Shown here: piece by piece, positions 1 through 40,602 of the stretch
Numbering within the stretch: position 1 is the first letter of the stretch
How the letters are laid out: every line of letters starts with the position of its first letter
Assembly: GCF_014323665.1 (NCBI RefSeq)
Contig: NZ_JABVEB010000024.1
Span: 1 to 57,167 of the forward strand
Source of the DNA: Actinomadura sp. HBU206391
GTDB taxonomy: Bacteria; Actinomycetota; Actinomycetes; Streptosporangiales; Streptosporangiaceae
Length of the DNA stretch: 57,167 nt
Direction of reading: 5' to 3'
Program-made: the position numbers and the translations under genes
Notes under the pieces: model-generated
Databases searched by the model: none
The model's input: the letters and a program-made list of their open reading frames with translations, nothing else
What the model was told of the DNA's origin: nothing

Positions 1-305
1 AGCCGGAGGCGAGGCCATGTACACGCCCCTCTAAACTATGGGTTTCCTCACTGCTGGTCAGAGCTCGAAAAACCCATGTCTGCTCTTGACTCAGAGCCGA
101 TGAGGAGCGATGCTGCGAGGCAACTGTGATGCATACTGCGGCGGTAGAGTTGCTAGCAGTGTGGCAATCGGCTACACTGCCCCTTTGCGCTGCCCTCTGA
201 CTATCCACGTTTGAGATCCGCTGGGATCACTCTCTGCGTCTCACTCATGGACCGTCTGGCGTGCGCGCCGTTCAGTACCGCCGCGAGCCCTCGGAAGGAC
301 CACTC
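1..305 (+). other. upstream region and leader of rpoBC
   Basis: I see no gene in this stretch. It holds an 8-bp inverted repeat (38-45 with 70-77, 24-nt loop), two candidate promoters (86-114 and 150-178) and the rpoB leader. The last bases carry a GGAAGGA ribosome-binding site at 293-299. The rplJ/rplL genes that normally precede rpoB must lie outside the window. Confidence 0.6.
150..178 (+). promoter_or_regulatory. probable main promoter of rpoBC
   Basis: TTGCTA at 150-155 and TACACT at 173-178 are separated by 17 nt, which fits a primary sigma factor promoter (four of six matches in each box). Transcription would start near 185 and give a leader of about 120 nt before the rpoB start. A weaker pair, TTGACT at 86-91 and GATGCT at 109-114 with 17-nt spacing, lies upstream and could be a second promoter. 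Confidence 0.6.
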
Positions 306-3773
<3,468 letters not shown>

Positions 3774-3805
3774 TTCTCAAACGACAACAGGGGACTGAAC
3801 ACAAC

Positions 3806-7678
<3,873 letters not shown>

Positions 7679-7704
7679 CAGGACAAGAGGAAAAAGCGCA
7701 CCAG

Positions 7705-7740
7705 GGATGGGGCCGCTTCCCGTCGGAAGCGGCCCCATCC
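7705..7740 (+). terminator. terminator of rpoBC
   Basis: A perfect 16-bp stem (7705-7720 with 7725-7740) closes a 4-nt CGTC loop 27 nt after the rpoC stop. The following bases (TCATAT) are only weakly T-rich, as is common for actinobacterial terminators. Confidence 0.85.
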
Positions 7741-7955
7741 TCATATCACGGCCGTCCGCCACATAGCGTGGTGATTTGCGGTGGCACCGGCGATCGCGGG
7801 AAGGTGGTCGCGATGGAGCTCAGCCGGGGACGGCCCGACATGGTGAGCAGAGACAGAGTTCGGGGGGCCGCGTTACGCGCCGTGCGCCTTCGGATGGAAC
7901 TGCATGCCCGGGCGTCGCACGCGCTCGGGGGGTACGGCGCTGAAGGAGCCCGACG

Positions 7956-9950
7956 ATGAGCGAGCAGGACGGCACGCAAGGACCGCAGTGGCCGCTGCCC
8001 GACGACCAGGGGCCGCCGCAGGGCGGGCGAACCGACGAGACCAAGGAGACCACCGAGGTCTCACAGGAGACCCAGGACACCGGGCCCGCGTCGACGATCC
8101 GCCCGATAGGCGACCGGACCGTCGTGTTCGGCGCCCCCGCGCCCTCCCGCGGAGGCCCGCAGCCGAGTCCCGAGTGGCCCCAAGGCAGCGGGTCGACACA
8201 GGGCAGTGAGTCGACACAGGGCAGCGGGTCGACGCAGGGCGGTGGGCCCGCCCAGGGCGTGCCGCCGCACGATCCGGCGCCGCCCGCACCGGGCTACGGC
8301 TCGCCGGCCTACGGCCAGCCCTCCTACGGGCAGCCGGCGGAACAGGAACGGTCTCCCTACGGAGCCCTGCCGCAGGCCGACCCCTACGCACCTCCGTCGT
8401 ACGGCCAGACGCCGGCCGCACCGGCCGCCCAGGATCCCTATGGCCAGGCGCCGACCCCCACCTACGGGCAACCGGCCGACCAGCCGCCGTACGCGCAGCC
8501 GTCCTACGGCCAGCCGTCGTACGGGCAGCCCGAGCAGCAGGCGCCGGGCCAGCAGGCGCCGGGCCAGCAGCCCTATGGGCAGCCCGAACAGCAGGCACAG
8601 GGGCAGCAGACACCGGGGCAGCAGGCGCCGGGCCAGCAGCCGTACGGTCAGCAGCCCCTCGGCCAGCCGGAGCAGCAGCCCTACGGCGGGCAGCCGGAGC
8701 AGCAGTCGTACGGTCAGCAGCCCTACGGCCAGCAGCCGTACGCCCAGCCGGAGCAGCAGCCCTACGGCGGACAGCCGTACGGGCAGGCACCCGGCCAGGA
8801 GAGCGGCTACCCGCAGCAGCCGGCCTACGGTACGCCGGGCGGCGGGCAGCAGGACGAGCCGTCCGGGTACCCGCGGCAGCCCGGCTCGTTCGGCCAGCCG
8901 GATCAGCCCCAGCAGCCCTACGAGGCACCGGGACGGCCGGAGCAGCCCTACGGGCAGCAGGCGACCTATGGCCAGTACGGCCAGGCGGCCTACGGGCAGC
9001 CCCAGCAGGGGCAGCAGCCGTACGGTGAGCAGGAGGCGCCGTACACGCCGCCGGCCTCGCCGGAGAGCTCCGGCTCTGACGCGCTCGGCGAACGCACGAT
9101 GATCGTGCCGGCTCCCGGGACCGGCACCGAGCCTCCGGTGGATCAGTCGTCCACCGACGAGCAGCCGGCCTACCGGTTGCCGACCGACGTTCCGCTGGTC
9201 TCGGGTCCGGGCGGTGGCGACACCGAAGAGCGGACCGTGACGGTGCAACCGCTGGACCAGGGCTTCGGCTCGGGCGGAGCGTCGGAGGAGCCCCGGTCCT
9301 ACGGTGCACCGGGTTCGGGTTTCGGGTCGCCCGGCGACCGGGACGAGGACGCCCAGCCGACCCAGGCCTTCCGTCCGTCCGAGGAGTCACCGGGCTTCTC
9401 CGACAGCGGGCAGGGGCGCTCGGAACCGGGCGGGCAGCAGCCGTGGTCGGCGCCCTCCGCCGACCAGGCGCAGCAGCCGTACGGCGGGCAGCAGCCCTAC
9501 GGGCAGCAGCAGGCCCAGCAGCCCTACGGCCAGCAGTCCTACGGTCAGCAGCCGTACGGCGGGCAGCAGGCTCAGCAGCCCTACGGCCAGCAGGCCCAGC
9601 AGCCCTACGGGCAGCAGCAGGCCCAGCAGCCCTACGGGCAGCCTGAGGGCCAGGCGGGTCAGCAGGGCTACGGCCAGCACGCGGCGTACGGTCAGCAGCC
9701 CGGGCAGCAGCACGGCCAGCCGGGCCAGCAAGGGCAGCAGCAGGCCCAGGGCCAGCAGGGCTACGGCCAGCACGCGGCCTATGGCCAGCAGCAGGGCCAG
9801 CACGGCGGCGAGACCGCCTACCCCGGCTACGGCAACGTCTCCGGATATCCGGACGAGGGCGGGAAATCGCGGGCCAAGCTGCTGATCGGGATCGGCGCGG
9901 CCCTGGTGGTCATCATCGCGGTGGTAGTGATCGTCGCCTACGTGCTCTGA
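7956..9950 (+). CDS. Gln/Gly/Tyr/Pro-repeat tail-anchored protein
   Basis: I do not recognise a family. The 664-residue protein is almost entirely low complexity: it has about 17 PYG tripeptides, mostly as QQPYGQ units, in two blocks (roughly residues 110-370 and 490-630). It has no cysteine and only three lysines. The sole hydrophobic segment is the last 24 residues, preceded by Lys-Ser-Arg-Ala-Lys, so the protein looks tail-anchored with the repeats in the cytoplasm. Three short non-repeat patches carry Asp/Glu-Arg-Thr followed by beta-branched residues (Thr55, Thr381, Thr427). The ATG at 7956 has GAAGGAG 7 nt upstream. It is a separate unit between two terminators. The composition resembles prion-like domains; any scaffold or condensate role is inference. 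Confidence 0.85.
8281..9840 (+). repeat. degenerate repeats coding QQPYGQ units
   Basis: Short imperfect direct repeats of the type CAGCAGCCCTACGGCCAG recur across this interval in frame. They form two blocks separated by non-repetitive sequence at about 9060-9420. Length changes by slippage or unequal recombination would stay in frame when whole units are gained or lost. Confidence 0.8.
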
Positions 9951-9991
9951 TCCGGCCGGCCCGGGCTCTTCTCAGAGCGACAGGTCTCAGG

Positions 9992-10030
9992 CAGAATGCC
10001 GACGGGAACAACCGTCGGCATTCTGTCGTT
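9992..10030 (+). terminator. terminator after the repeat-protein gene
   Basis: A perfect 14-bp stem (9992-10005 with 10012-10025) has a 6-nt loop and is followed by TCGTTCTGT, a moderately T-rich tail. It lies 42 nt after the stop codon. Confidence 0.85.
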
Positions 10031-10089
10031 CTGTACCGTTGACGACATGGGTGGCTTCCGGCCGCCCCCGGCGGGATCGACCGCTCGCT

Positions 10090-10118
10090 TTGACCTTTGG
10101 TGCGAGGGTGGGTAGTCT
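10090..10118 (+). promoter_or_regulatory. promoter of rpsL-rpsG-fusA-tuf
   Basis: TTGACC at 10090-10095 and TAGTCT at 10113-10118 are separated by 17 nt. This is a good match to the vegetative sigma consensus of actinomycetes and sits where the str operon promoter is expected. It implies a leader of about 250 nt. Confidence 0.75.
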
Positions 10119-10378
10119 TTCCCTTCGTGCCCGCGGTATGCGGGCCATCATGCGTGTGTGCTGGCTTTGCCGTGCGCCGCATTCAACTCCCCGGCTCGGT
10201 TCGGCCCTTACGGGCCGGATGGATTGCGGCGGGCGCGACACGCCCGACCGCGGGGGTCGGAGAGGTCGGGAAACCGGCAGGTCACAGCCTCGGAAGGGGC
10301 TGTGAATCACGGTTGCACGCAAGTGCGATCGTCCAGAGGAAGACTTACCGGCTCGGTACGAGGGAAGACGGAGACGCG

Positions 10379-10753
10379 GTGCCCACGATCCAGCAGCTGG
10401 TCCGAAAGGGCCGCCAGGACAAGGTGACCAAGAACAAGACGCCCGCGCTTAAGGGGAGCCCCCAGCGCCGGGGTGTCTGCACGCGCGTCTACACGACGAC
10501 GCCGAAGAAGCCGAACTCCGCGCTGCGCAAGGTCGCCCGTGTTCGGTTGTCCAGCGGAATAGAGGTCACGGCCTACATTCCGGGCGTCGGCCACAACCTG
10601 CAGGAGCACTCGATCGTGCTCGTGCGCGGTGGTCGTGTGAAGGACCTCCCGGGTGTCAGGTACAAGATCATCCGCGGCACTCTGGACACCCAGGGTGTGC
10701 GCAACCGCAAGCAGGCGCGCAGCCGCTACGGCGCGAAGAAGGAGAAGAGCTGA
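10379..10753 (+). CDS. rpsL: 30S ribosomal protein S12
   Basis: S12 lies at the decoding centre of the 30S subunit and monitors codon-anticodon pairing. The 124-residue product contains the [11 protein letters not shown] segment and the later [12 protein letters not shown] segment, where streptomycin-resistance changes normally arise. Both look wild type, with lysine at each classical site. Translation starts at GTG 10379, with GGAG 5 nt upstream; the open frame extends further upstream but nothing there resembles S12. It is the first gene of the str operon and overlaps rpsG by one base (TGATG). Confidence 0.98.
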
Positions 10754-11223
10754 TGCCCCGCAAGGGACCTGCCGCCAAGCGTCAGCTGATCGCTGACCCG
10801 GTGTACAACTCGCCGCTGGTCACCGCACTGATCAACAAGGTGCTGCTGGACGGCAAGCGCTCGATCGCGCAGAGCATCGTGTACGACGCTCTCGAGGGCG
10901 CCCGCGAGAAGACCGGCAACGACCCGGTCGTCACGCTGAAGCGCGCGCTCGACAACGTGAAGCCGACCCTCGAGGTCCGCAGCCGGCGAGTCGGCGGCGC
11001 GACCTACCAGGTGCCGGTGGAGGTGCGCCCGGCGCGCAGCACCACTCTCGCCCTGCGGTGGCTCATCGTCTACTCCCGGCAGCGCCGCGAGAAGACGATG
11101 ACCGAGCGGCTGATGAACGAGCTGCTCGACGCGAGCAACGGCCTCGGCGCGAGTGTGAAGAAGCGCGAGGACACCCACAAGATGGCGGAGTCGAACAAGG
11201 CCTTCGCCCACTACCGCTGGTAA
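10753..11223 (+). CDS. rpsG: 30S ribosomal protein S7
   Basis: S7 nucleates assembly of the 30S head and contacts the E-site tRNA and mRNA. The 156-residue protein has the standard bacterial length, beginning [11 protein letters not shown] and ending in the KAFAHYRW tail typical of the family. The ATG overlaps the rpsL stop codon by one base, so translation is probably coupled. In E. coli S7 represses its own operon; whether that happens here is not visible. Confidence 0.98.
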
Positions 11224-11266
11224 TCCAGCTCACAGACGTACGAGAAGACGCGAGGACGCGAGCACA

Positions 11267-13378
11267 GTGGCTACTCAGACCGGTGTAGACCTGGCCAAGG
11301 TCCGCAACATCGGGATCATGGCCCACATCGACGCGGGCAAGACGACGACGACTGAGCGCATCCTGTTCTACACAGGCATGAGCTACAAGATCGGCGAGGT
11401 CCACGACGGCGCGGCCACCACCGACTGGATGGAGCAGGAACAGGAGCGGGGAATCACCATCACCTCCGCTGCCGTCACCTGCAAGTGGGAGGTCGACAAG
11501 ACCGACCACACCATCAACATCATCGACACCCCCGGGCACGTCGACTTCACCGTCGAGGTGGAGCGGTCGCTGCGGGTGCTCGACGGTGCCGTCGCCGTGT
11601 TCGACGGCGTGGCCGGAGTCGAGCCGCAGTCCGAGACGGTGTGGCGTCAGGCCGACCGCTACGGCGTCCCGCGGATCTGCTTCGTCAACAAGCTCGACCG
11701 GGTCGGCGCGGAGTTCCACCGCTGCGTCGACATGATCGTGTCGCGGCTCAACGCGACGCCCCTGGTGCTGCAGCTGCCGATCGGCGCCGAGGCGGACTTC
11801 AAGGGCGTCATCGACCTCGTGTCGATGAAGGCGCTCGTGTGGAGCCCCGAGGCCAAGATGGGCGAGATGTACGACACCGTCGACATCCCGGACACCCACG
11901 TCGAGGCGGCCCGCGAGTGGCACGACCGGCTGGTCGAGACGCTGGCCGAGGGCGACGACGAGATCATGGAGCTGTACCTCGAGGGCAACGAGCCCACGGC
12001 GGACCAGCTGATCGCCGGGATCCGTCGCGCGACCATCGCCGGCAACCTCACTCCGGTGCTGTGCGGCACGGCGTTCAAGAACAAGGGCGTGCAGCCGCTG
12101 CTGGACGCGATCGTCCGCTACCTGCCCTCGCCGATCGACGTTCCCTCTGTCGAGGGTCACGACGTGAAGAACGAGGAGAAGGTCATCGCTCGCAAGCCGA
12201 GCGAGGACGAGCCGTTCTCCGCGCTCGCCTTCAAGATCATGAGCGACCCGCACCTGGGCAAGCTGACCTACATCCGGGTCTACTCCGGTGTTCTCGAGGC
12301 CGGCACGCAGGTCCTGAACAGCGTGAAGGACCGCAAGGAGCGGATCGGCAAGATCTACCGGATGCACGCGAACAAGCGTGAGGAGATCGGCCATGTGGGC
12401 GCCGGCGACATCGTCGCGGTGATGGGCCTGAAGTCCACCACCACGGGCGAGACGCTGAGCGACCCGGCCAACCCGGTGATCCTCGAATCCATGACCTTCC
12501 CGGCCCCGGTCATCAACGTGGCGATCGAGCCGAAGACCAAGGTCGACCAGCAGAAGCTGGGCACCGCGATCCAGCGGCTGGCCGAGGAGGACCCCTCCTT
12601 CCAGGTCCGTACGGACGAGGAGACCGGTCAGACCATCATCTCGGGCATGGGCGAGCTCCACCTGGAGATCCTCGTCGACCGGATGAAGCGGGAGTTCAAG
12701 GTCGAGGCCAACGTCGGCCGCCCGCAGGTCGCCTACCGCGAGACCATCCGCCGCAAGGTCGAGAAGGTCGAGTACACCCACAAGAAGCAGACCGGTGGTG
12801 CGGGCCAGTTCGGCCGGGTCATCATCGACCTGGAGCCGCTGGGTGGCGGTAGCGACGGCTATGAGTTCGAGAACAAGGTGACCGGTGGCCGTATCCCGCG
12901 GGAGTACATCCCGTCCGTGGACGCGGGCTGCCAGGAGGCCGCCGAGTTCGGTGTGCTCGCGGGGTACCCGCTGGTGGGCATCAAGGTCACCTTGCGTGAC
13001 GGTGCCTACCACGACGTGGACTCCTCGGAGATGGCGTTCAAGGTCGCCGGTTCCATGGCGTTCAAGGAGGCGGCCCGCAAGGCCGACCCCGCGCTGCTGG
13101 AGCCGATGATGGCGGTCGAGGTCACCACTCCCGAGGACAACATGGGTGACGTGATCGGCGACCTGAACAGCCGGCGTGGTCAGATCCAGGCGATGGACGA
13201 GTCACACGGCGCCCGGGTCGTCAAGGCCATCGTTCCCCTCTCTGAGATGTTCGGCTACGTGGGCGACCTGCGCAGCAAGACCCAAGGCCGAGCGGTATTC
13301 ACCATGCAGTTCGACTCCTACGCGGAGGTTCCCACGAACGTCGCGCAGGAGATCATCGCGAAGGCGCGGGGCGAATAA
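11267..13378 (+). CDS. fusA: elongation factor G
   Basis: EF-G is the GTPase that drives tRNA-mRNA translocation and, with RRF, ribosome recycling. The 703-residue protein has the P-loop AHIDAGKT at residues 19-26, the DTPGH switch-II motif from Asp87 and the NKLD guanine-specificity motif at 141-144. Domains II to V follow, including the RETI and GQFGRV segments. The GTG at 11267 starts 44 nt after rpsG; the only Shine-Dalgarno-like match is GAGG 11 nt upstream. It is a typical str operon fusA, with no sign of the antibiotic-related paralogues. Confidence 0.98.
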
Positions 13379-13458
13379 GCGCTGCCGCCGGTATTGCCAG
13401 CCATTTTCAGCAAACGTAGACGGACGTCGAAAGGCGTCAGATTCACAAGGAGACACCA

Positions 13459-14652
13459 GTGGCCAAGGCCAAGTTCGAGCGGACGAAGCCGCACGTAAAC
13501 ATCGGCACCATTGGGCACATCGACCATGGTAAAACCACTCTTACCGCGGCGATTACCAAGGTGCTCCACGACAAGTACCCGGACCTGAACCCCTTCACGC
13601 CGTTCGACGAGATCGACAAGGCGCCGGAGGAGCGGGAGCGGGGCATCACGATCTCCATCGCGCACGTCGAGTACCAGACCGAGGCGCGGCACTACGCGCA
13701 CGTCGACTGCCCGGGTCACGCGGACTACATCAAGAACATGATCACCGGCGCCGCCCAGATGGACGGTGCGATCCTGGTCGTGGCCGCCACCGACGGCCCG
13801 ATGCCGCAGACCAAGGAGCACGTGCTGCTCGCCCGCCAGGTCGGCGTGCCCTACATTGTCGTGGCCCTCAACAAGGCCGACATGGTCGATGACGAGGAGA
13901 TCCTGGAGCTCGTCGAGCTCGAGGTCCGTGAGCTTCTCACCGAGTACGAGTTCCCGGGCGATGACGTCCCGGTCGTGCGCGTCTCCGCGCTCAAGGCGCT
14001 CGAGGGCGACGCCGAGTGGGGCGAGAAGATCGTCGAACTCATGACCGCCGTGGACGAGAGCGTCCCGCAGCCGGTGCGTGAGACCGAGAAGCCCTTCCTC
14101 ATGCCGATCGAGGACGTCTTCTCGATCACCGGTCGAGGCACGGTCGTCACCGGCCGGATCGAGCGTGGTGTCGTCAACGTCAACGAGACCGTCGACATCA
14201 TCGGCATCCAGGAGAAGGCCACCACGACCACCGTCACCGGTGTCGAGATGTTCCGCAAGCTGCTCGACCAGGGCCAGGCCGGCGACAACGTCGGTCTGCT
14301 CCTGCGAGGCATCAAGCGCGAGGACGTCGAGCGCGGCCAGTGTGTGATCAAGCCGGGCACGAACACCCCGCACACCGAGTTCGAGGCGCAGGTCTACATC
14401 CTGTCCAAGGACGAGGGCGGCCGGCACACGCCGTTCTTCAACAACTACCGTCCGCAGTTCTACTTCCGGACCACGGACGTGACCGGCGTCGTCAACCTGC
14501 CCGAGGGCACGGAGATGGTCATGCCGGGCGACAACACCGAGATGAAGGTCGACCTGATCCAGCCGATCGCGATGGAGGAAGGTCTCCGTTTCGCGATCCG
14601 TGAGGGCGGCCGCACCGTCGGTGCCGGTCGCGTGGTCAAGATTCTCAAGTAA
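13459..14652 (+). CDS. tuf: elongation factor Tu
   Basis: EF-Tu carries aminoacyl-tRNA to the ribosomal A site. The 397-residue protein has GHIDHGKT at residues 19-26, DCPGH from Asp83 with the catalytic His87, and NKAD at 138-141. The beta-barrel domains II and III follow, ending in the usual GRVVKILK. The GTG at 13459 has AAGGAGA 5 nt upstream, a stronger site than that of fusA, in keeping with high EF-Tu demand. The 80-nt spacer after fusA shows no obvious promoter. Confidence 0.98.
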
Positions 14653-14666
14653 AGACACCCCGCGGA

Positions 14667-14702
14667 GCGGCGGTCCGGTCCTCCAGAGCACCGGACCGCC
14701 GC
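14667..14702 (+). terminator. hairpin between tuf and rpsJ
   Basis: A perfect 13-bp GC-rich stem (14667-14679 with 14690-14702) has a 10-nt loop and starts 14 nt after the tuf stop. No T-tract follows. It probably ends or attenuates str operon transcription. I see no convincing separate promoter between it and rpsJ, so some read-through into the S10 operon is likely. Confidence 0.7.
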
Positions 14703-14756
14703 GCCACGACACCGAAGTAACCAGCGGCACTACCAGCAAAGGACACCGAGGCCACA

Positions 14757-15065
14757 ATGGCGGGACAGAAGATCCGCATCCGGCTCAAGGCCTACGACCA
14801 CGAGGTCATCGACACCTCGGCGCGAAAGATCGTCGAGACGGTGACGCGCACGGGCGCCAAGGTCGCGGGCCCGGTGCCGCTGCCGACCGAGAAGAACGTG
14901 TACTGCGTCATCCGCTCGCCGCACAAGTACAAGGACTCGCGCGAGCACTTCGAGATGCGCACACACAAGCGGCTGATCGACATCATCGATCCGACGCCCA
15001 AGACGGTCGACTCGCTCATGCGGCTCGACCTTCCGGCCGGCGTCGACATCGAGATCAAGCTCTAA
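14757..15065 (+). CDS. rpsJ: 30S ribosomal protein S10
   Basis: S10 is a head protein of the 30S subunit and, as NusE, also joins the antitermination complex. The 102-residue product has the standard length and the typical segments [11 protein letters not shown] and THKRLIDI, followed by the [12 protein letters not shown] end. The ATG at 14757 follows AAAGGA and GAGG elements. It opens the S10 gene cluster that runs without large gaps to rpsQ. Confidence 0.98.
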
Positions 15066-15078
15066 AGGACGCACCCAG

Positions 15079-15729
15079 ATGAGTAAGCAGAGAAAGGGCG
15101 TCCTGGGCGAGAAGCTCGGCATGACCCAGGTCTTCGACGATGAGGGCCGGATGGTGCCGGTAACCGTCGTCCAGGCCGGGCCGTGCGTTGTCACCCGGGT
15201 ACGTACGCCCGAAGTAGACGGCTACACCGCCGTCCAGCTCGGCTACGGCCAGATCGACCCGCGCAAGGTGAACAAGCCGCGCACGGGTCACTTCGACAAG
15301 GCCGGCGTCACGCCGCGCCGTTACGTCGTCGAGCTCCGGACCGACAACGCCACCGAGTACGAACTCGGCCAGGAGATCACCGTTGACGTCTTCGAGGCCG
15401 GCCAGAAGATCGACGTCACAGGCACGAGCAAGGGCAAGGGCACTGCCGGTGTCATGAAGCGCCACGGGTTCAAGGGACTCGGCGCCTCTCACGGCACGCA
15501 GCGCAAGCACCGCTCGCCCGGCTCGATCGGCGGCTGCGCGACCCCTGGTCGCGTGTTCAAGGGCCTGCGCATGGCGGGGCGGCACGGTAACGCCCGCACC
15601 ACCGTGCAGAACCTGACCGTGCACGCCGTGGACGCGGACAAGGGTCTGCTGCTCATCAAGGGCGCGGTCCCCGGCCCGAACGGCGGCCTGCTGCTGGTCC
15701 GCAACGCAGTGAAGGGAGCGGGCGCATGA
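15079..15729 (+). CDS. rplC: 50S ribosomal protein L3
   Basis: L3 is an early 50S assembly protein whose long loop reaches toward the peptidyl-transferase centre. The 216-residue product starts with the common [15 protein letters not shown] segment and contains the conserved loop [21 protein letters not shown] ribosome-binding site AAAGGA lies between the rpsJ stop and the ATG at 15079. The 3' end overlaps rplD by 4 bases (ATGA), consistent with translational coupling. Confidence 0.98.
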
Positions 15730-16370
15730 GTGCACAGATCACCAAGGCCACACGGGCCGACATAAAGCTGGCGCCCGAGATCTTCGACGCGAAGGTCAAC
15801 GTGCCGCTGATCCACCAGGTGGTCGTGGCGCAGCTCGCCGCGGCCCGGCAGGGCACGGCCTCGACCAAGACCCGGGGCGAAGTCTCCGGCGGTGGCCGCA
15901 AACCGTACCGGCAGAAGGGCACCGGCCGGGCCCGTCAGGGCTCGACCCGCGCGCCGCAGTTCGCCGGCGGTGGCGTCGTGCACGGCCCGCAGCCGCGCTC
16001 GTACGCGCAGAAGACGCCCAAGAAGATGAAGGCCGCCGCGCTCCGCGGCGCCCTGTCCGACCGGGCCCGGCACGGCCGGGTGCACGTGGTCGGCCCGCTG
16101 GTCGACGGCGACACGCCGAAGACCAAGGCCGCTCTGACCGCGCTGCGCGAGATCACCGAGGCGCGCAACATCCTGCTGGTGCTCGACGGCACGGACGAGG
16201 TGACCTGGGCGAGCCTGCGCAACGAGCAGAGCGTCCACCTCCTCGTGGCCGGTCAGCTCAACACCTACGACGTGCTCTGCAGCGACGACGTGGTGTTCAC
16301 CGAGAAGGGTTACGACGAGTTCGTGACCCGGGCGCTCAAGACGATGAAGAAAGAGGGGGCGGACAAGTGA
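15726..16370 (+). CDS. rplD: 50S ribosomal protein L4
   Basis: L4 binds domain I of 23S rRNA and lines the exit tunnel. The 214-residue protein carries the conserved loop [24 protein letters not shown] split around residues 55-80, where macrolide-resistance changes occur in other bacteria; nothing unusual is seen there. In E. coli L4 represses the S10 operon. The gene overlaps rplC and rplW by 4 bases each, so the three are tightly coupled. Confidence 0.97.
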
Positions 16371-16669
16371 GCAAGATCGCTGACCCCCGCGACATCCTGA
16401 TCGCGCCCGTCGTCTCGGAGAAGAGCTACGGGCTGCTGGACGAGAACAAGTACACGTTCCTCGTACAGCCGGACGCCAACAAGACCCAGATCAAGCAGGC
16501 GGTCGAGGCGGTGTTCCAGGTCAAGGTCGCGAGCGTGAACACGATCAACCGGCAGGGTAAGCGCAAGCGCACCCGCCACGGCTTCGGTAAGCGCAAGGAC
16601 ACCAAGCGCGCGATCGTCAGCCTGGCCGAGGGCGAGCGGATCGATATCTTCGGCGGCCCCGCCGCCTAG
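16367..16669 (+). CDS. rplW: 50S ribosomal protein L23
   Basis: L23 sits at the mouth of the exit tunnel and is the docking site for trigger factor and signal recognition particle. The 100-residue product begins [20 protein letters not shown], with the family's conserved PVVSEKS, and has the basic [18 protein letters not shown] segment. The GTG at 16367 overlaps the rplD stop by 4 bases (GTGA). A spacer of 37 nt follows before rplB. Confidence 0.97.
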
Positions 16670-16706
16670 GGCGGGCCTCGAAGTAGACAAGGGATGAACG
16701 AAAAAG

Positions 16707-17540
16707 ATGGGCATCCGTAAGTACAAGCCGACGACACCGGGTCGTCGCGGGTCCAGCGTGGCCGACTTCGTGGAGGTCACGCGCCGCGAGCCCGAGAAGT
16801 CGCTGCTGCGTCCGCTCCCCAAGAAGGGCGGCCGCAACAACCACGGCCGCATCACCACGCGGCACCAGGGCGGCGGTCACAAGCGCGCCTACCGCGTCAT
16901 CGACTTCCGGCGCGCGGACAAGGACGGCGTGCCGGCCAAGGTCGCGCACATCGAGTACGACCCCAACCGCACCGCGCGGATCGCGCTGCTGCACTACGCC
17001 GACGGGGAGAAGCGCTACATCCTCGCCCCGACCGGCCTGAAGCAGGGCGACCGGGTGGAGAACGGCGCGGGCTCGGACATCAAGCCGGGCAACTGCCTGC
17101 CGCTGCGCAACATCCCGACCGGTACGGTCGTGCACGCCATCGAGCTGCGGCCGGGCGGCGGCGCCAAGATCGCCCGTTCCGCGGGCGCCGGGGTGCAGCT
17201 GCTGGCCAAGGAGGGCACCTACGCCACGCTGCGGATGCCCTCGGGCGAGATGCGGTTGGTGGACGTACGCTGCCGCGCCACGGTCGGCGAGGTCGGTAAC
17301 GCCGAGCAGTCGAACATCAACTGGGGCAAGGCCGGGCGTTCCCGCTGGAAGGGCAAGCGCCCGACCGTCCGCGGTGTGGCCATGAACCCGATCGACCACC
17401 CGCACGGTGGTGGTGAGGGCAAGACCTCTGGTGGTCGGCACCCGTCGAGCCCGTGGGGCCAGCCGGAGGGGCGTACGCGTAAGGCGCAGAAGCCCAGCGA
17501 CCGGCTCATCGTCCGTCGTCGCAGCAAGAAGAAGCGGTAG
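16707..17540 (+). CDS. rplB: 50S ribosomal protein L2
   Basis: L2 is needed for subunit association and peptidyl-transferase assembly. The 277-residue product has the usual bacterial length. The hallmark C-terminal segment [18 protein letters not shown], which contains the conserved histidine next to the catalytic centre, is followed by RHPSSPWG. The ATG at 16707 lies 37 nt after rplW. Confidence 0.98.
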
Positions 17541-17551
17541 GAGTCGCTGTC

Positions 17552-17830
17552 ATGCCACGTAGCCTCAAGAAGGGCCCGTTCGTGGACGACCACCTGATGA
17601 AGAAGGTGGACGTGCAGAACGAGAAGGGCACCAAGAACGTCATCAAGACGTGGTCGCGGCGCTCCATGATCGTGCCGGAGATGATCGGTCACACGATCGC
17701 CGTGCACGACGGCCGCAAGCACGTCCCGGTGTTCATCACCGATGCCATGGTCGGTCACAAGCTCGGCGAGTTCTCGCCGACGCGGACCTACCGCGGCCAT
17801 GTCCGCGACGACCGCCGCAGCCGGCGTTGA
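17552..17830 (+). CDS. rpsS: 30S ribosomal protein S19
   Basis: S19 forms part of the 30S head, contacts the A-site finger bridge and pairs with S13. The 92-residue product begins [15 protein letters not shown], the standard S19 start, and includes the [21 protein letters not shown] core and the basic RDDRRSRR end. It follows rplB after 11 nt and precedes rplV by 26 nt. Confidence 0.98.
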
Positions 17831-17856
17831 GTCTGAGCTAGAGAGAGGGAACAGCG

Positions 17857-18248
17857 ATGGAAGCCAGGGCCCAGGCGCGGTTCATCCGCGTCACGCCCAG
17901 GAAGGCCCGCCGCGTGGTGGACCTCATCCGCGGCCTGCCGGCCGCGGAGGCTCAGGCGGTGCTGCGGTTCGCCCCCCAGGCTGCTAGTGAGCCGGTGGGC
18001 AAGGTGCTGGCGAGCGCCATCGCCAACGCCGAGCACAACAACAAACTCGACGCCGACACGCTCGTCGTCAGCCGGGCCTGGGTCGACGAGGGTCCCACCC
18101 TCAAGCGATTCCGGCCGCGTGCACAGGGCCGGGCGTACCGGGTGAACAAGCGCACCAGCCATATCACCGTGATCGTCGAGTCGCGGCCCGAGAGTGCCGG
18201 CGCCGCGCCCCGTAGGGGCACCGCCAATAAGACGAGGAGGACCCGCTA

Positions 18249-18249
<1 letters not shown>
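17857..18249 (+). CDS. rplV: 50S ribosomal protein L22
   Basis: L22 spans the exit tunnel with a long beta-hairpin. The 130-residue protein has the family start [21 protein letters not shown] and the hairpin segment [33 protein letters not shown] ribosome-binding region precedes the ATG at 17857. The stop codon overlaps the rpsC GTG by one base. Confidence 0.97.
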
Positions 18250-19121
<872 letters not shown>

Positions 19122-32930: not shown

Positions 32931-33827
32931 GTGTCGGATAAGCGAGCCCCGACTGATATGACCGCTCTTGTACGACTCCGACTCGATATCGGGTACGACG
33001 GGTCGGAATTCGCAGGTTGGGCTCGTCAGCCCGGGCAGAGGACCGTTCAGGGCGTCATCGAGGACGCCCTCGCCAGGCTGCTCCGGCTGGATCCGCCGCC
33101 GGTGCTCACCGTGGCGGGCCGGACCGACGCCGGAGTGCACGCGCGCGGTCAGGTCGCGCACGTCGTCGTTCCCGCAGCCCCGTACGCCCAGATCAACGGC
33201 ACCATGCCGCGCCGGCTGGCGGGCCTTCTCCCGCCCGATGTCCGGGTCTGGCGGGTGGCCGTGGCCCCCGAGGGGTTCGACGCGCGGTTCTCCGCGCTGG
33301 CCCGCCGGTACGTCTACCGGGTCTGTGACGACCCCGTCGGTGTCGAACCCCTGCGCCGTCATGACATGGTGTGGCACCCGCGCCCGCTGAACGTGGATCG
33401 GATGAACGCAGCGACGGCGCTGTTGCTCGGTGAACACGATTTCGCGGCCTTCTGCCGTCGCCGCGAGGGCGCGACCACGATCCGGCGACTCCTGCGGTAC
33501 GAGTGGGCGCGCGAGCGCGAGCGCGTCGCGGTCGCCACCGTCGAGGCCGACGCCTTCTGCCATTCGATGGTGCGGGCCCTCGTGGGAGCCCTGCTGGCGG
33601 TCGGAGACGGCCGCCGGGAGGTGGGGTGGCCGGCCGAGGTGCTGGCCGCGCGCGTCCGCGATTCCGCCGTCAACGTGGCCCCGGCGCATGGGCTCTCGCT
33701 CGAGGAGATCCGCTATCCGGGCGATGAGGCACTGGGTCTGCGGGCCCAGGAGACCCGGCGGGTACGGACCCTCAACGCCTCCGCGCCGGCCCCGCCGCCC
33801 GGCGAGGCCTCGGCGGCCGCGCCCTAG
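32931..33827 (+). CDS. truA: tRNA pseudouridine synthase A
   Basis: TruA makes pseudouridine at positions 38-40 in the anticodon stem of tRNA. The catalytic Asp lies in [12 protein letters not shown] (about residue 65); other family segments are [32 protein letters not shown] and HDFAAFC. GTG 32931 has GAGAGG 5 nt upstream; ATG 32958 is an alternative that would remove 9 residues. The C-terminal 25 residues are Ala/Pro-rich. It follows the rplQ terminator and converges with the next gene after 12 nt. Confidence 0.95.
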
Positions 33828-33839
33828 GACGCGGCCCGG

Positions 33840-35453
33840 CTATCGGGCGCGCCGGTCGATGGGGCGCACGGCGTAGGCGATGAACTGGCGGGTCAGGGCC
33901 CTCAGCACCTGATCCGCGGCCTGGGGCCGGGTGCCGTCCACGTACTGCGCGTAGGAGTAGATGATGTAGCGGCCTCGTACGGTGCTCGACGCGTAGCCAC
34001 CGGCCTGATCGATCTTCGTCGCGACCTTACCGCGCATGCCGCGGAACCATTCGTACCGGCTGGGATCGCCGGCCCTGTTCGCGGTCAGTGCCGCGGCGCG
34101 GGTGGGCATGACCGCGACGCCTGTCGTGACGGCGTACTTCCTGCCGTTGACATACGTCGCGCGCACCACACTGCGGCACCGGCCGCGTTCCAGCGCCGTG
34201 ACCATCGCGCCGCGCGCGGCCAGCCCGCACTGGTGGTTGACCGAGGTCTTGTCCTGCTTGTACGCACGGGAGCCCAGCATGATCGTGCTGGTCGGGAACA
34301 CCTCGGTGAGCGACAGCGGACGCCGGTCGGTCCGTTCGCTGTCGATGCTGGACGCGGGCCCGGTCCTGCTCGGTCTCGGGGTGGCCTGGGCCGACGGCGC
34401 CTGCGACGGTGCGGACGACCGGACGAGAGGAGTGGAGGGGGCCGCGGCGCGCTCGGCCGGGCCGCTCGTCATCTTGATCCCGATGACGGCGGCGGAGAAC
34501 ACGATGACGGTGGCCACCCCGCCTCCGATGACCAGCAATCTGCGGCGGACGCCCGCGTCCGGCGCGGGCGGGGCCGGTGGCGAGCCCATCGGGTGCGGCC
34601 CCAGGCCCTCGGTCTGGTAGGCGGGCGCCGTCACGACGCCGGGAGGCGGTGAGAGCGCGCCCTGCGGTGCCATGGTCGGCATGGTGCTGACCGTGGCGGC
34701 TCCATTGCGGGCGGGGCGTGATCCGGCGTCCCGGAGACGGGCGGCGAAGTCGTCCGGCGGTCGGGCCGCCGCTCCGGCCGTCGCTTGGTGCGGGGGTTCG
34801 GCTGTCTCTTCGGCGGGGGGCTCGACGGGCTCGACCAGGTCGAAGACGGGTGACGCCTCAGGCGGTGGGGCCATGCCCGCGGACGTGGCGACGCCCGACG
34901 GGGGCCCTCCGAACAACTCGCCCGGCCCGGCGGCCGGCTCGGCCTGCTCCATGATCGGGATGCCATCGGGTTCGGTGTCGTAGAAATCCGGAGAACCGGT
35001 GTCCGGCCGGTACATCGGTCCGGCGGGCAGTGCGCCCCTGGTGTCGAAGGCGGGCACCCCGGGCCCGGCCACCAGCGTGCCCGGTGAGGGCGGCATGATC
35101 GGCGCGGGCCGCGGCTCGGTCATGCCCCGCGGGTCTTCGGAACCTTCGACCGCTGCGTCCTCGGCGTCGTCGGCCACGGGCTCATCGGCCACGGCCTCGT
35201 CGACCACGGTCTCGTCGACCACGGCCTCGTCGACCACGGGGGCCGACTCCCACCACGGCGCCTTCGGCCCGTCCAGATGGGCCGTGGCGGAGGCCTGTGG
35301 TGACCCGGAGTCCTCGGGGGCCCCCGACGGGGGCTGCGGGATACCGGCGTTACCGAAGCTCGGCGGGGCGGCGGGGATCTGAGACGGCGATGCCGCCTCA
35401 CTCTCTGCTTCCGGCACCGCGACGGGCTCGGACGGCTCTTCACGACCAGACAT
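33840..35453 (-). CDS. single-pass membrane protein, envelope paralogue A
   Basis: I do not recognise a named family. The 537-residue protein has an acidic, Pro/Ala-rich cytoplasmic arm (about residues 1-300), one membrane helix (about 303-327, RRRLLVIGGGVATVIVFSA), a Ser/Pro linker and an extracytoplasmic domain of about 160 residues. That domain contains RPLSLTEVF, two cysteines 17 residues apart and ERGRCRSVVRATYVNGRKYAVTTGVAV. It is paralogous to the protein of the preceding gene (35478-36623). ATG 35453 is chosen over a TTG two codons earlier; no strong ribosome-binding site is seen. It lies 24 nt behind its paralogue, probably in one transcript. Confidence 0.85.
   Translation of the reverse strand: MSGREEPSEPVAVPEAESEAASPSQIPAAPPSFGNAGIPQPPSGAPEDSGSPQASATAHLDGPKAPWWESAPVVDEAVVDETVVDEAVADEPVADDAEDAAVEGSEDPRGMTEPRPAPIMPPSPGTLVAGPGVPAFDTRGALPAGPMYRPDTGSPDFYDTEPDGIPIMEQAEPAAGPGELFGGPPSGVATSAGMAPPPEASPVFDLVEPVEPPAEETAEPPHQATAGAAARPPDDFAARLRDAGSRPARNGAATVSTMPTMAPQGALSPPPGVVTAPAYQTEGLGPHPMGSPPAPPAPDAGVRRRLLVIGGGVATVIVFSAAVIGIKMTSGPAERAAAPSTPLVRSSAPSQAPSAQATPRPSRTGPASSIDSERTDRRPLSLTEVFPTSTIMLGSRAYKQDKTSVNHQCGLAARGAMVTALERGRCRSVVRATYVNGRKYAVTTGVAVMPTRAAALTANRAGDPSRYEWFRGMRGKVATKIDQAGGYASSTVRGRYIIYSYAQYVDGTRPQAADQVLRALTRQFIAYAVRPIDRRAR
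35163..35237 (-). repeat. five 15-nt tandem repeats in paralogue A
   Basis: Five consecutive 15-nt units (on the plus strand of the type GGCCTCGTCGACCAC) encode an acidic VDEAV-type pentapeptide repeat in the cytoplasmic arm. The two outer units are more divergent than the inner three. Confidence 0.85.
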
Positions 35454-35477
35454 AGGCAATCAGCGTATTCGTAGTGG

Positions 35478-36623
35478 TTACTTTTGGAGGGGCTTGCCCA
35501 CGTTTCCGCGGTAGTTAAGTGCTTCGAACAGGCCGCTGCCCAGCATCACGTCCTGGCCGAACTTGGAGATCACCCGGTGCCGGCTCGAGGGGATGTCCTT
35601 GCCGCTGGGCTGCTGAACCCAGGTCATCAGCAGATAGTGACCCTTGAACTGGAAGGTTCCGAGCGCGGTGCCCTTCCCGATCGTCCTGGTGATCCCAGGA
35701 CCGGGGACCGGTTGCACCCAGGCGTCCTTGGCGCTCCAGACGCGGCTGGCGGCCCTGGCGGCGGTCGCGGTGCGCAGGTTGGCCACGCCGACCGTGCCGA
35801 TCAACTTGCCGTCCGACGAGGCGAACGTGGCCCGCATCACCTGGTTGCAGTATCCGCGCCGCAATGCCGTCACGAGCCTGGCACCGTTCACGGTCCTGGC
35901 GCAATTGCGGTCGGCACGCCGGGCCGTCATCGTGTACCGGTTCGCGCCGACCTTGAACGTGCGGCGCTGGAAGATCTCGTTCAGGGTCAGCGGTCTGGGA
36001 TCAGTGGTCCGGCTGTTGCCGAGCCCCCCGATGCGGGGCGTGGGCGAGGCGGCCTTCGGACTGGTGGACGATCGCGGGGAGGCCTGCGACTTGGCCGACG
36101 TGGGCGCCGGATCGTCCTCGAGCACGTTCGAGATGCCGATGCCGCCGCCGATGAGCACGATGCCGGCCACGACGGCGCCGCCGGCGATCAGCGGCAGGTT
36201 GCCGCGGCGGCCAGGCGGCGTGGGCCCGCGACGGCCGGGCTCGCCCGGATGCGCGTGCGCACCGCGGCCGGGCCCGGGCCGGCCGCCCGGACGGCCCGGT
36301 TCGTAAGGGCCTGCCTCGTGGGGGCCCGGCTCGTGGGGGCCCGGCTCGTGTGGGCCTGCCTCGTTGGGACCAGGGCCGGGCCCGTAGGGACCCGGCCCGT
36401 ACTGACGGGGGTCGGACTCACCCTGGTGTTCGGGACGGTCGGTGCCGCCGTGGGAGTCGCCGGGCCTGGGGGTGAACGGCCCCTCATCGTCGGGCGGGGG
36501 GTTGAATGGACTCCGGCCGTAGGGAGACGTGCCGGATCGCGGTTGTCCGGGGCTGTACGGCGCCCGCGGCGGCTGCTCAGGTGGCCAGCTGCCGGATTGG
36601 CCTTGATTACCCGGGTAATTCAT
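35478..36623 (-). CDS. single-pass membrane protein, envelope paralogue B
   Basis: This 381-residue protein has the same plan as paralogue A: a Pro/Gly-rich cytoplasmic arm (1-140), a membrane helix (about 141-166, NLPLIAGGAVVAGIVLIGG), a Ser/Pro linker and an extracytoplasmic domain. The domain shares RPLTLNEIF, two cysteines 18 residues apart and LVTALRRGYCNQVMRATF followed by GKLIGTVGVANL with paralogue A. The C-terminal 60 residues differ more. I do not know the family. ATG 36623 is clear. It lies 121 nt behind the CAP-domain gene and 24 nt ahead of paralogue A. Confidence 0.85.
   Translation of the reverse strand: MNYPGNQGQSGSWPPEQPPRAPYSPGQPRSGTSPYGRSPFNPPPDDEGPFTPRPGDSHGGTDRPEHQGESDPRQYGPGPYGPGPGPNEAGPHEPGPHEPGPHEAGPYEPGRPGGRPGPGRGAHAHPGEPGRRGPTPPGRRGNLPLIAGGAVVAGIVLIGGGIGISNVLEDDPAPTSAKSQASPRSSTSPKAASPTPRIGGLGNSRTTDPRPLTLNEIFQRRTFKVGANRYTMTARRADRNCARTVNGARLVTALRRGYCNQVMRATFASSDGKLIGTVGVANLRTATAARAASRVWSAKDAWVQPVPGPGITRTIGKGTALGTFQFKGHYLLMTWVQQPSGKDIPSSRHRVISKFGQDVMLGSGLFEALNYRGNVGKPLQK
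36301..36375 (-). repeat. five 15-nt tandem repeats in paralogue B
   Basis: Five consecutive 15-nt units (plus strand type TCGTGGGGGCCCGGC) encode GPHEP-type pentapeptides in the cytoplasmic arm. The two central units are identical. Confidence 0.85.
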
Positions 36624-36744
36624 GGATACGGACCCTATCGGTCGATTTGAGGGGGTCTGGACGTCGTCTACGGCACCGTCCGCACAGGCTCAGGGCCACG
36701 ATGACATGGCCGGGGACCGGCGCGCCGGGCGTCCGGGACGGGCG

Positions 36745-37470
36745 TCACTCCCAGCCGAAGTCCTGCGTCCACCATGGGCCCCCGGCGGCGAAATGCGCCC
36801 CGACGCCGATCGCGCGCAGATCGCAGTTGAGGATGTTGGCCCGGTGCCCCGGGCTCTTCATCCAGCCGGCGACGACCGCGGCGGCGGTCGGATGGCCCTT
36901 CGCGATGTTCTCCGCTCCCGGGCTCAGATAACCGGCCGCCTTGATGCGGTCCACGAAGGTGGAGCCGGACGGCGAGTCATGTGAGAAGTAGTCGCGCGCC
37001 GCCATGTCCGCCGAGTGCCGCCGGGCGGCCGTACGGAGACGGGCGTCGACCCGCAGCGGGCCACATCCGGCCTTGGACCGCTCTCGATTGGTCAACTGCG
37101 CCACGGTCGCCTCGGCGCCGCCGCCGGAGTTGGACGCGGTGCCCTGGGACGGCGCCTTCGAGGGAGTGGCAGAGCGCCGGGACTGCGCGGCGGGCCGTTG
37201 GATCCGCTTGAGCGGCGGCGTGGGTTCGGCGGTGGCCTGGGGCGAGGCCGGGGCGGATCGGTCGGCGGACGCCTGATCGTCGATGGGCTGTGACGACGCC
37301 GTGCCGGTGGAGTGCTCCTCGAAGACGAGCTTCGTATCGGGTTCGGTGAGAAACAGTCGGTCCGCGGCGAAACCGGCACTCATCGCCAGGGCGGCTAGGG
37401 CCAGTGCGGACACTGCCGTGCGGTTCCTGGACAGGGGGCCCTCCCGGGGGTGAAGCTGACCGCACCGCAC
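36745..37470 (-). CDS. secreted CAP/SCP-domain protein
   Basis: After an N-terminal signal sequence (SRNRTAVSALALAALAMSAG) and a low-complexity Ser/Pro/Thr linker comes a C-terminal CAP (SCP/PR-1, YkwD-like) domain of about 125 residues. Typical residues are the His in DYFSHDSP, the Glu in GAENIAKG, and SPGHRANILN near the end. Bacterial YkwD-type CAP proteins are extracellular, but their activity is largely unknown. The start is uncertain. GTG 37470 gives 241 residues, but a -10-like TATAGA lies at 37471-37476, and CTG 37434 has GGGAGGG 4 nt upstream. It is probably the first gene of a leftward cassette with the two paralogues. Confidence 0.85.
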   Translation of the reverse strand: MRCGQLHPREGPLSRNRTAVSALALAALAMSAGFAADRLFLTEPDTKLVFEEHSTGTASSQPIDDQASADRSAPASPQATAEPTPPLKRIQRPAAQSRRSATPSKAPSQGTASNSGGGAEATVAQLTNRERSKAGCGPLRVDARLRTAARRHSADMAARDYFSHDSPSGSTFVDRIKAAGYLSPGAENIAKGHPTAAAVVAGWMKSPGHRANILNCDLRAIGVGAHFAAGGPWWTQDFGWE

Positions 37471-37764: not shown

Positions 37765-38208
37765 GTGCGCACGTACACCCCTAAGCCCGCTGATGTGCAG
37801 CGTCAGTGGCACGTCATCGACGCGACCGATGTCGTGCTGGGTCGCCTCGCCAGTCAGGTCGCGATCCTGCTTCGGGGAAAGCACAAGCCGATCTACGCAC
37901 CGCATCTCGACACGGGTGACTTCGTCATCATCGTGAACGCGGGCAAGGTGGCGCTCTCCGGCAACAAGCGGGAGCAGAAGCGCGCCTACCGCCACTCGGG
38001 CTACCCCGGCGGTCTCCGCTCGATCGCTTACGGGGACCTGCTGGACAAGCACCCGGAGCGCGCGGTGGAGAAGGCCATCAAGGGCATGCTCCCCAAGAAC
38101 TCGCTCGGCCGGAAGATGTTCGGCAAGGTCAAGGTCTATGCCGGCCCCGAGCACCCGCACAAGGCGCAGCAGCCGGTGCCCTTCGAGATCACCCAGATCG
38201 ACCAGTAG
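37765..38208 (+). CDS. rplM: 50S ribosomal protein L13
   Basis: L13 is an early 50S assembly protein. The 147-residue product has the standard start [20 protein letters not shown], the [19 protein letters not shown] segment and [23 protein letters not shown] 37765 follows a GAAGG element. It forms an operon with rpsI, 77 nt downstream. Confidence 0.98.
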
Positions 38209-40284: not shown

Positions 40285-40602
40285 TCAGTCGGAGTCGACC
40301 TCGAACCGACCGACCTTCAGGTGCTTGATCTCGACCGTACCGGCCTGAAGGTGGCCGATGACCGCCCGCTTGATGGCGAGCCGGCCGATGGCCACCGCGC
40401 CGATCGCGAGCGCACCGAGGGCCATGGAGCCAAGGGCGAGCGAGCCCAGACCGGTCATGCCGGTGGCCTTGGCGCCGGTGGCGGCTGCTCCGGTGGCGCG
40501 CGCGACCGTCGCCCGCTTCGTCCGTACCCGGGGCGGCTTCGCGTCCGGCGTCTCGTCGATCCCGGCTGCTTCGTCAGGGGTCTGCTCAGGCTCGGCGCTC
40601 AT
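40285..40602 (-). CDS. small period-5 repeat protein
   Basis: The 105-residue protein has an acidic then basic N-terminus (1-45) and a C-terminal part of about ten pentads with a hydrophobic residue at fixed positions and Gly or Lys at the end (LALGS, MALGA, LAIGA, VAIGR and so on to the RFEVDSD end). This regularity suggests a solenoid or beta-helical fold rather than a membrane helix, although the first pentads are hydrophobic enough to insert. I know of no assigned function. ATG 40602 is preceded 8 nt upstream by TACAAT (minus strand, 40611-40616), so the mRNA is probably leaderless. Confidence 0.75.
   Translation of the reverse strand: MSAEPEQTPDEAAGIDETPDAKPPRVRTKRATVARATGAAATGAKATGMTGLGSLALGSMALGALAIGAVAIGRLAIKRAVIGHLQAGTVEIKHLKVGRFEVDSD

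What the first reader, a model, noticed from the sequence alone, without database searches (positions are those of the whole stretch)
33840..37470. Undescribed envelope cassette: a CAP-domain protein plus two paralogous single-pass proteins
Three leftward genes are wedged between truA and rplM. Two of them are diverged tandem paralogues with the same plan: disordered cytoplasmic arm, one helix, and an outer domain with RPL(S/T)L(T/N)E(V/I)F, two cysteines 17-18 residues apart and a GR/GY-C...V-RAT core. The first gene encodes a secreted CAP domain. Cytoplasmic arms next to translation genes and a shared outer domain suggest a linked surface function, perhaps sensing or wall interaction. I recognise no described system with this make-up.
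Basis: partly seen in the sequence, partly recalled or inferred. Interest (0 to 1): 0.7.

Follow-up and report, generated by a model that had tools for sequence, protein, structure and literature searches.

The report
Kinase-less receptor pair with CAP protein
Between two housekeeping genes, an Actinomadura-like bacterium carries genes for a CAP-domain protein and two sister proteins, each predicted to cross the membrane once; the sisters' outer domain is predicted to fold like the sensor of a known receptor kinase but no kinase is attached, so they likely pass information about the cell envelope inward through long floppy arms that carry conserved short motifs.

The parts
33840..35453 (-). 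P1: predicted single-pass protein, 537 aa; long disordered Pro/Ala/Gly-rich arm, one helix, outer domain; groups with the single truA-side gene of Streptomyces- and Frankia-type genomes
33843..34355 (-). P1 outer domain (residues about 367-537), predicted PknH-sensor-like fold; Cys codons at 34227-34229 and 34176-34178
34482..34538 (-). P1 predicted transmembrane helix
   Evidence: hydropathy maximum 2.51
35037..35075 (-). P1 arm motif LVAGPGVPAFDTR, conserved in the alignment; the model shows a low-confidence hairpin near here
35250..35258 (-). P1 arm motif PWW
   Evidence: 55 of 72 P1 arms, shuffle mean 0.35, max 3
35352..35369 (-). P1 arm-tip motif APPSFG
   Evidence: PP[SNGH]FG in the first 80 aa of 52 of 72 P1 arms, shuffle mean 0.125, max 2
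35478..36623 (-). P2: predicted single-pass protein, 381 aa; Gly/Pro-rich arm, one helix, outer domain
35481..36026 (-). P2 outer domain (residues 200-381), predicted PknH-sensor-like fold; Cys codons at 35901-35903 and 35847-35849
36132..36188 (-). P2 predicted transmembrane helix
   Evidence: hydropathy maximum 2.18
36582..36623 (-). P2 arm-tip motif (MNYPGNQ.. here)
   Evidence: ^M.YPG in 26 of 32 P2 arms, shuffle 0; GGW[PS] in the first 30 aa of 17 of 32, shuffle max 1
36745..37470 (-). CAP-domain protein with one N-terminal hydrophobic segment (signal or anchor); start codon uncertain
   Evidence: PF00188 88.5 bits; hydropathy
36757..37095 (-). CAP domain
   Evidence: PF00188 residues 126-238
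32931..33827 (+). truA, convergent with P1 (flanking gene, not part of the cassette)
   Evidence: recurrent neighbour
37765..38208 (+). rplM (flanking gene, not part of the cassette)
   Evidence: recurrent neighbour

Best explanation
P1 and P2 are paralogous, predicted single-pass membrane proteins that likely act as kinase-less receptors or tethers: an outer domain predicted to fold like the PknH sensor would bind an envelope ligand or partner, and the long disordered arm, predicted to lie inside the cell, would carry the state inward through conserved short motifs that would dock a cytoplasmic protein. Shown by sequence: the shared outer domain with its Cys pair, one hydrophobic stretch, the conserved arm motifs, the recurrent place beside truA and rplM, and CAP found in this slot only where P2 is, in the loci examined. 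Predicted: the fold, the orientation and a disulfide. Inferred: that P1 and P2 form a pair outside the membrane with CAP as the wall-facing partner, that the motifs bind a cytoplasmic protein, and that ligand binding changes clustering or localisation, as has been proposed for PknH. P1 would be the core element, since a relative stands alone in Streptomyces- and Frankia-type genomes; P2 and CAP would be an addition in the window's family.
Confidence: 0.45

Rival explanations
1. P1 and P2 are structural anchors, not receptors: the outer domain holds on to the wall or to CAP, and the arm recruits a cytoplasmic growth or division protein to the membrane.
For: Motifs are conserved in arms of very variable length, as expected of a flexible tether. 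The CAP protein weakly matches the divisome-associated lipoprotein model DalA (E 3.4e-16, 59.6 bits, cut-off 200); DalA is reported as needed for normal division in Rhodobacterales (title and start of abstract in the listing, PMC10470522).
Against: No wall-binding domain is recognised in P1 or P2; the DalA match is far under its cut-off and lies in the CAP domain, which many families share.
Confidence: 0.22
2. The genes share no function; each is an old resident of a conserved chromosomal slot held together by selection on truA and rplM.
For: The slot carries other guests elsewhere: ESX-4-type genes in one Mycobacterium-like genome, an ABC-F gene in several Streptomyces-like genomes and in G072, which has no domain hit there. 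CAP can lie elsewhere.
Against: P1 and P2 are paralogues kept side by side on one strand with gaps of 23-24 bp in L037, L038 and L040, though 31-139 bp in most others measured and 439 bp in L046. CAP was found only in slots with P2 (17 of 19 against 0 of 30; related genomes, so not independent counts).
Confidence: 0.2
3. The outer domains assemble into a ring or tube, as TiME does in the mycobacterial outer envelope, and the cassette is an envelope conduit.
Against: TiME has an N-terminal Sec signal and helix, whereas P1 and P2 carry long arms before the helix; these organisms are not mycolate bacteria (recalled); the PknH sensor ranks higher in both models.
Confidence: 0.05
4. The family belongs to type VII secretion: the slot is the ESX-4 slot of mycobacteria, and a paralogue pairs with a mycosin-like protease.
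For: In L154, one of three family-f4 genomes looked at, the truA-rplM interval holds EccB, EccC and EccD above cut-off, a WXG100-like protein just under it (41.7 of 44.85 bits) and a mycosin match. Six of six domain genes in four regions (L059, L135-L137) lie directly before a mycosin-like protease (TIGR03921 262 and 259 bits for two, cut-off 279); two of the four regions were fetched or viewed because the pairing had been seen in them.
Against: No EccB, EccC, EccD or WXG100 match in those four regions; the slot in the window holds only the three genes; the own genome's EccB-EccC-EccD locus is on contig C46, and none of the own genome's six domain matches lies there.
Confidence: 0.06

Closest known systems
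PknH receptor Ser/Thr kinase (sensor domain, PF14032 PknH_C, PDB 4esq)
   Same: Cytoplasmic part, one helix, C-terminal outer domain; best structural match of both models.
   Different: No kinase in P1 or P2 nor annotated in a listed homologue; disordered arm instead; one Cys pair instead of two; no profile-profile match.
TiME (Rv3705c / MSMEG_6251)
   Different: N-terminal signal and helix, ring-forming, outer envelope of mycobacteria (passages of PMC11434571).
DUF7373 (PF24088)
   Same: Part of the domain aligns: 5 of 32 members match at E up to 1 (best 2.9e-5); hhalign 50%, E 1.6e-4 over 70 columns.
   Different: Window P2 domain scores 15.6 bits against a cut-off of 27, over 64 of 190 residues.
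RseB / MucB C-terminal domain
   Different: RseB and MucB are periplasmic two-domain proteins that bind an anti-sigma factor (recalled); no such partner was looked for here.
CAP / YkwD family and DalA
   Same: CAP protein belongs to PF00188.
   Different: Below the cut-offs of TIGR02909 (104.9 of 171) and DalA (59.6 of 200).

Membership tests
PknH_C (PF14032) | Reaches the Pfam gathering score | tested here: not met
   No PF14032 match for P1 or P2; 1 of 32 family members matches, E 6.8e-5; the C478 paralogue has 22 of 27 bits.
PknH_C (PF14032) | PknH sensor fold | tested here: met
PknH_C (PF14032) | Two disulfides (four conserved Cys) | tested here: not met
   Four invariant Cys in 15 PknH_C rows; two Cys in each window domain. 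The nine Streptomyces-like domains have four Cys, positions not compared.
PknH_C (PF14032) | Profile-level similarity | tested here: inconclusive
   hhalign probability 0.9%, E 0.064 with 32 and 15 rows, but single members match weakly.
PknH-type receptor kinase | Cytoplasmic Ser/Thr kinase domain | tested here: not met
   No kinase model in P1 or P2; Pfam column empty for every listed homologue (homologues limited to 0.55-1.75 of query length).
TiME | N-terminal signal/helix followed directly by the soluble domain | tested here: not met
   Hydrophobic helix begins at residue 306 (P1) and 146 (P2) after a long arm.
TiME | Ring or tube assembly | not testable with these tools
   Only monomer models could be made.
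DUF7373 (PF24088) | Reaches the Pfam gathering score | tested here: not met
   13.9 bits (whole P2) and 15.6 bits (domain) against 27.
CAP (PF00188) | Reaches the Pfam gathering score | tested here: met
   88.5 bits against 21.1.
YkwD family (TIGR02909) | Reaches the NCBIfam cut-off | tested here: not met
   104.9 bits against 171.
Type VII secretion (ESX-4 slot) | Ecc core genes in the slot | tested here: not met
   The three window proteins match no T7SS model; Ecc genes do fill the slot in L154.

The most novel reading that the evidence does not exclude
A whole class of kinase-less, PknH-type transmembrane receptors, standing beside truA in Streptomyces, Frankia and Streptosporangiaceae, in which the catalytic kinase is replaced by a disordered arm whose tip motif hands the envelope signal to a cytoplasmic machine; in the window's family it has become a two-receptor and CAP complex.
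Probability: 0.3. Interest if true: 0.75.

Novelty: new variant of a known kind. Interest (0 to 1): 0.5.

Why it matters
A relative of P1 stands in well-studied genera (Streptomyces, Frankia) at a recurrent place beside truA and rplM, and the named homologues are all 'hypothetical protein' (one also carries a UniRef name, Tat pathway signal protein). If it is a receptor without a kinase, it is an unrecognised route by which these bacteria could report envelope state to the inside, and the short tip motif makes the partner findable by a peptide pull-down in a laboratory Streptomyces.

Tried and rejected
Type VII secretion as the home of the cassette: the slot is the ESX-4 slot in one Mycobacterium-like genome (in the two other f4 genomes, L155 and L156, truA was not near rplM), but no Ecc gene lies in the window's slot or beside the mycosin-paired paralogues; kept as a low rival. 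Recent local duplication of P1 and P2: not borne out by the tree (a 95/83 split puts P2 with the lgt-type paralogues and P1 with the slot genes of the other families and the mycosin group; P1 plus single-gene copies 92/96, not starred). The tree tool warned of long branches meeting (Streptomyces-like with mycosin rows; two lgt rows) and of odd letter make-up in three single-gene rows. PknH_C membership by sequence: not met. PDB sequence search with P2 alone (best E 0.31) and with the domain profile (best E 1.9): nothing significant. APPxFG as a motif shared with other proteins of the genome: three genomic matches against five for the reversed control pattern; one is P1, one falls in a 99-aa ORF that partly overlaps a regulator gene on the other strand, one (contig C24) was not examined. 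Promoter and terminator scan: one promoter-like site on the + strand upstream of rplM and one terminator-like site inside the CAP gene against 1.1 expected; it says nothing on co-transcription. Literature: searches (SCO4731-4733, gene numbers recalled; truA, rplM, synteny) listed no paper that appears to treat this gene (listings only); searches gave nothing useful; two gave the three papers cited for PknH and TiME, 26 the DalA listing. One tree label was wrong: L180, labelled 'elsewhere', is a cassette CAP (G020), and that bootstrap had not settled. In one search several spacings printed as None and three loci (L043, L045, L063; L065 in part) gave no value, because my patterns missed them. 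In one search the P2 set left out P0004 and the more distant P0042-P0056, and 1 of 73 P1 and 6 of 38 P2 rows were dropped for want of an arm of 60 residues; both sets include the window's own protein. Contexts of the lgt-type group were viewed for L055, L057, L058 and L060 only; L053, L061 and L062 were put in that group without viewing.
Full report
Observation. From 5' to 3' on the minus strand they are CAP (36745-37470), P2 (35478-36623) and P1 (33840-35453 from its conserved ATG). P1 and P2 share their outer domain at 32% identity over 171 aa (E 7e-15). Each has one hydrophobic helix. CAP belongs to PF00188 (88.5 bits). P1 and P2 match no NCBIfam model at E 1; in Pfam P1 has no match and P2 only a weak one to DUF7373 (E 0.05).

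Where it occurs. With the P2 protein, 56 of 61 genomes of the family have a match of some member; with the domain profile, 82 of 296 genomes of the class at E 1e-5. Of 30 regions fetched span truA to rplM; P1 and P2 are in all 19 (chosen by a P2 match) and CAP in 17. The other 11 are three broken by contig ends (L044, L056, L066) and eight at other places. By hand, CAP lies within 2.5 kb of a P2 match in 26 of 61 genomes. Searches fetched 34 usable stretches around further domain hits: 30 place one domain gene beside truA, rplM or both (Streptomyces-like 9, Frankia-like 9, f37 2, same-family single-gene 10), with no CAP match; three (L135-L137) lie beside mycosin-like genes and one (L126) has no domain hit. 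In 26 of the 30 the gene lies within 3 kb of truA; in L077 and L131 it is 6-8 kb off, and L070 and L129 show no truA; the two f37 stretches show no rplM. One search names the Frankia-like family (13 loci: Frankia and Parafrankia); the named hits are Streptomyces; name Actinomadura, Spirillospora, Thermomonospora, Actinoallomurus and Sphaerisporangium. G072 (L157) has truA, an ABC-F gene and rplM and no domain hit.

History. A tree of 92 domains has a 95/83 split with P2 and the lgt-type paralogues on one side, and P1, the slot genes of the other families and the mycosin-paired genes on the other. P1 and the single-gene same-family copies group at 92/96; P1 needs two changes because those copies lie inside it. 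P1 is therefore read as the old resident of the slot, and P2 as an old paralogue rather than a local copy. The tool's warnings on long branches are given under Tried and rejected. Three genomes without CAP beside P2 (G048, G016, G001) have a CAP of the latter clade elsewhere. Whether CAP joined the cassette once or twice is open.

Arms. P1 arms carry PP[SNGH]FG near the tip in 52 of 72 homologues and PWW in 55 of 72; P2 arms begin M.YPG in 26 of 32. Shuffled arms never exceeded 2, 3 and 0. APPSFG-like and PWW motifs do not occur in the P2 arms of that call (0 of 32 each). In the 19 cassette loci the counts are 16 (PP[SNGH]F), 10 (PWW or W[FY] after D, T or Q) and, for P2, 16 of 19. Of 120 listed homologues of a Streptomyces-like protein (136 found), 111 have MS[FY]GQ within the first 40 residues. 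Frankia-like and single-gene lineages show other tips (DPLFGP; PIAPHPNEP), seen by eye; the second is matched by a loose pattern in 8 of 10 loci. The full-length P1 alignment also shows LVAG.G.P..DTR and DTDPDGIP. P1 arms run from 70 to 644 residues; in the 19 loci the open frame before the domain, helix and linker included, runs from 246 to 1308 codons. Motifs stay while length varies, which I read as docking. The motifs were picked from these sequences, and the sequences are related, so the counts are not independent tests.

Mechanism. The parts are those of a receptor without its enzyme: a sensor-like outer domain, one helix and an arm with short motifs. For PknH, a cleft that binds a small ligand and signals through localisation or oligomerisation has been proposed (passages of PMC4118811 and PMC3601408). 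By analogy, P1 and P2 would sense or hold an envelope component, possibly together with CAP, and bring a cytoplasmic partner to it. The ligand, the partner, the orientation and the complex are all inferred. A purely structural tether is the strongest rival.

Other loci. The same domain occurs as tandem pairs between lgt and gltB in L055 and L060; in the own genome it follows lgt on contig C131 and, as a pair, precedes gltB on C142 (lgt confirmed for L058, other names by eye). In four regions six domain genes each precede a mycosin-like protease. In one Mycobacterium-like genome (my inference from its many PknH_C copies) the truA-rplM slot holds ESX-4-type genes. These leads are recorded, not explained.

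Noticed in passing
L059 9998-12024 (own genome C478); L135, L136, L137: A divergent paralogue of the outer-domain protein sits directly before a mycosin-like subtilase, six of six times in four regions (two looked at because it had been seen there), without EccB, EccC, EccD or WXG100 matches nearby.
   Followed up: partly
L055, L060; own genome L057 (C142) and L058 (C131): Second family locus: paralogues between lgt and gltB, in a row with trp genes, a MauE/DoxX-like protein and a DsbA-like protein (names by eye), which may supply disulfides.
   Followed up: partly
L154 (Mycobacterium-like genome) 98-18469: The truA-rplM interval is occupied by ESX-4-type genes (EccB, EccC, EccD, a WXG100-like protein, a mycosin match), so the slot is a recurrent home for envelope genes.
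   Followed up: partly
L067, L068, L077, L078: In these Streptomyces-like genomes an ABC-F ATPase gene lies between the domain gene and rplM; the Streptomyces-like domains have four Cys instead of two.
   Followed up: no
window 35163-35245 and 36290-36372: Short tandem repeats in the arms: VVDEA-type repeats in P1 and GPHEPGPHEP-type repeats in P2.
   Followed up: no
window 40285-40602 (-): A 105-aa ORF behind glmM with a run of ALGALAIGAVAIGRLAI repeats, possibly a small repeat or beta-solenoid protein.
   Followed up: no
L118-L128 (without L126): Single-gene same-family genomes have a different conserved arm tip (S.PIAPHPNEP), matched in 8 of 10 loci by a loose pattern.
   Followed up: partly
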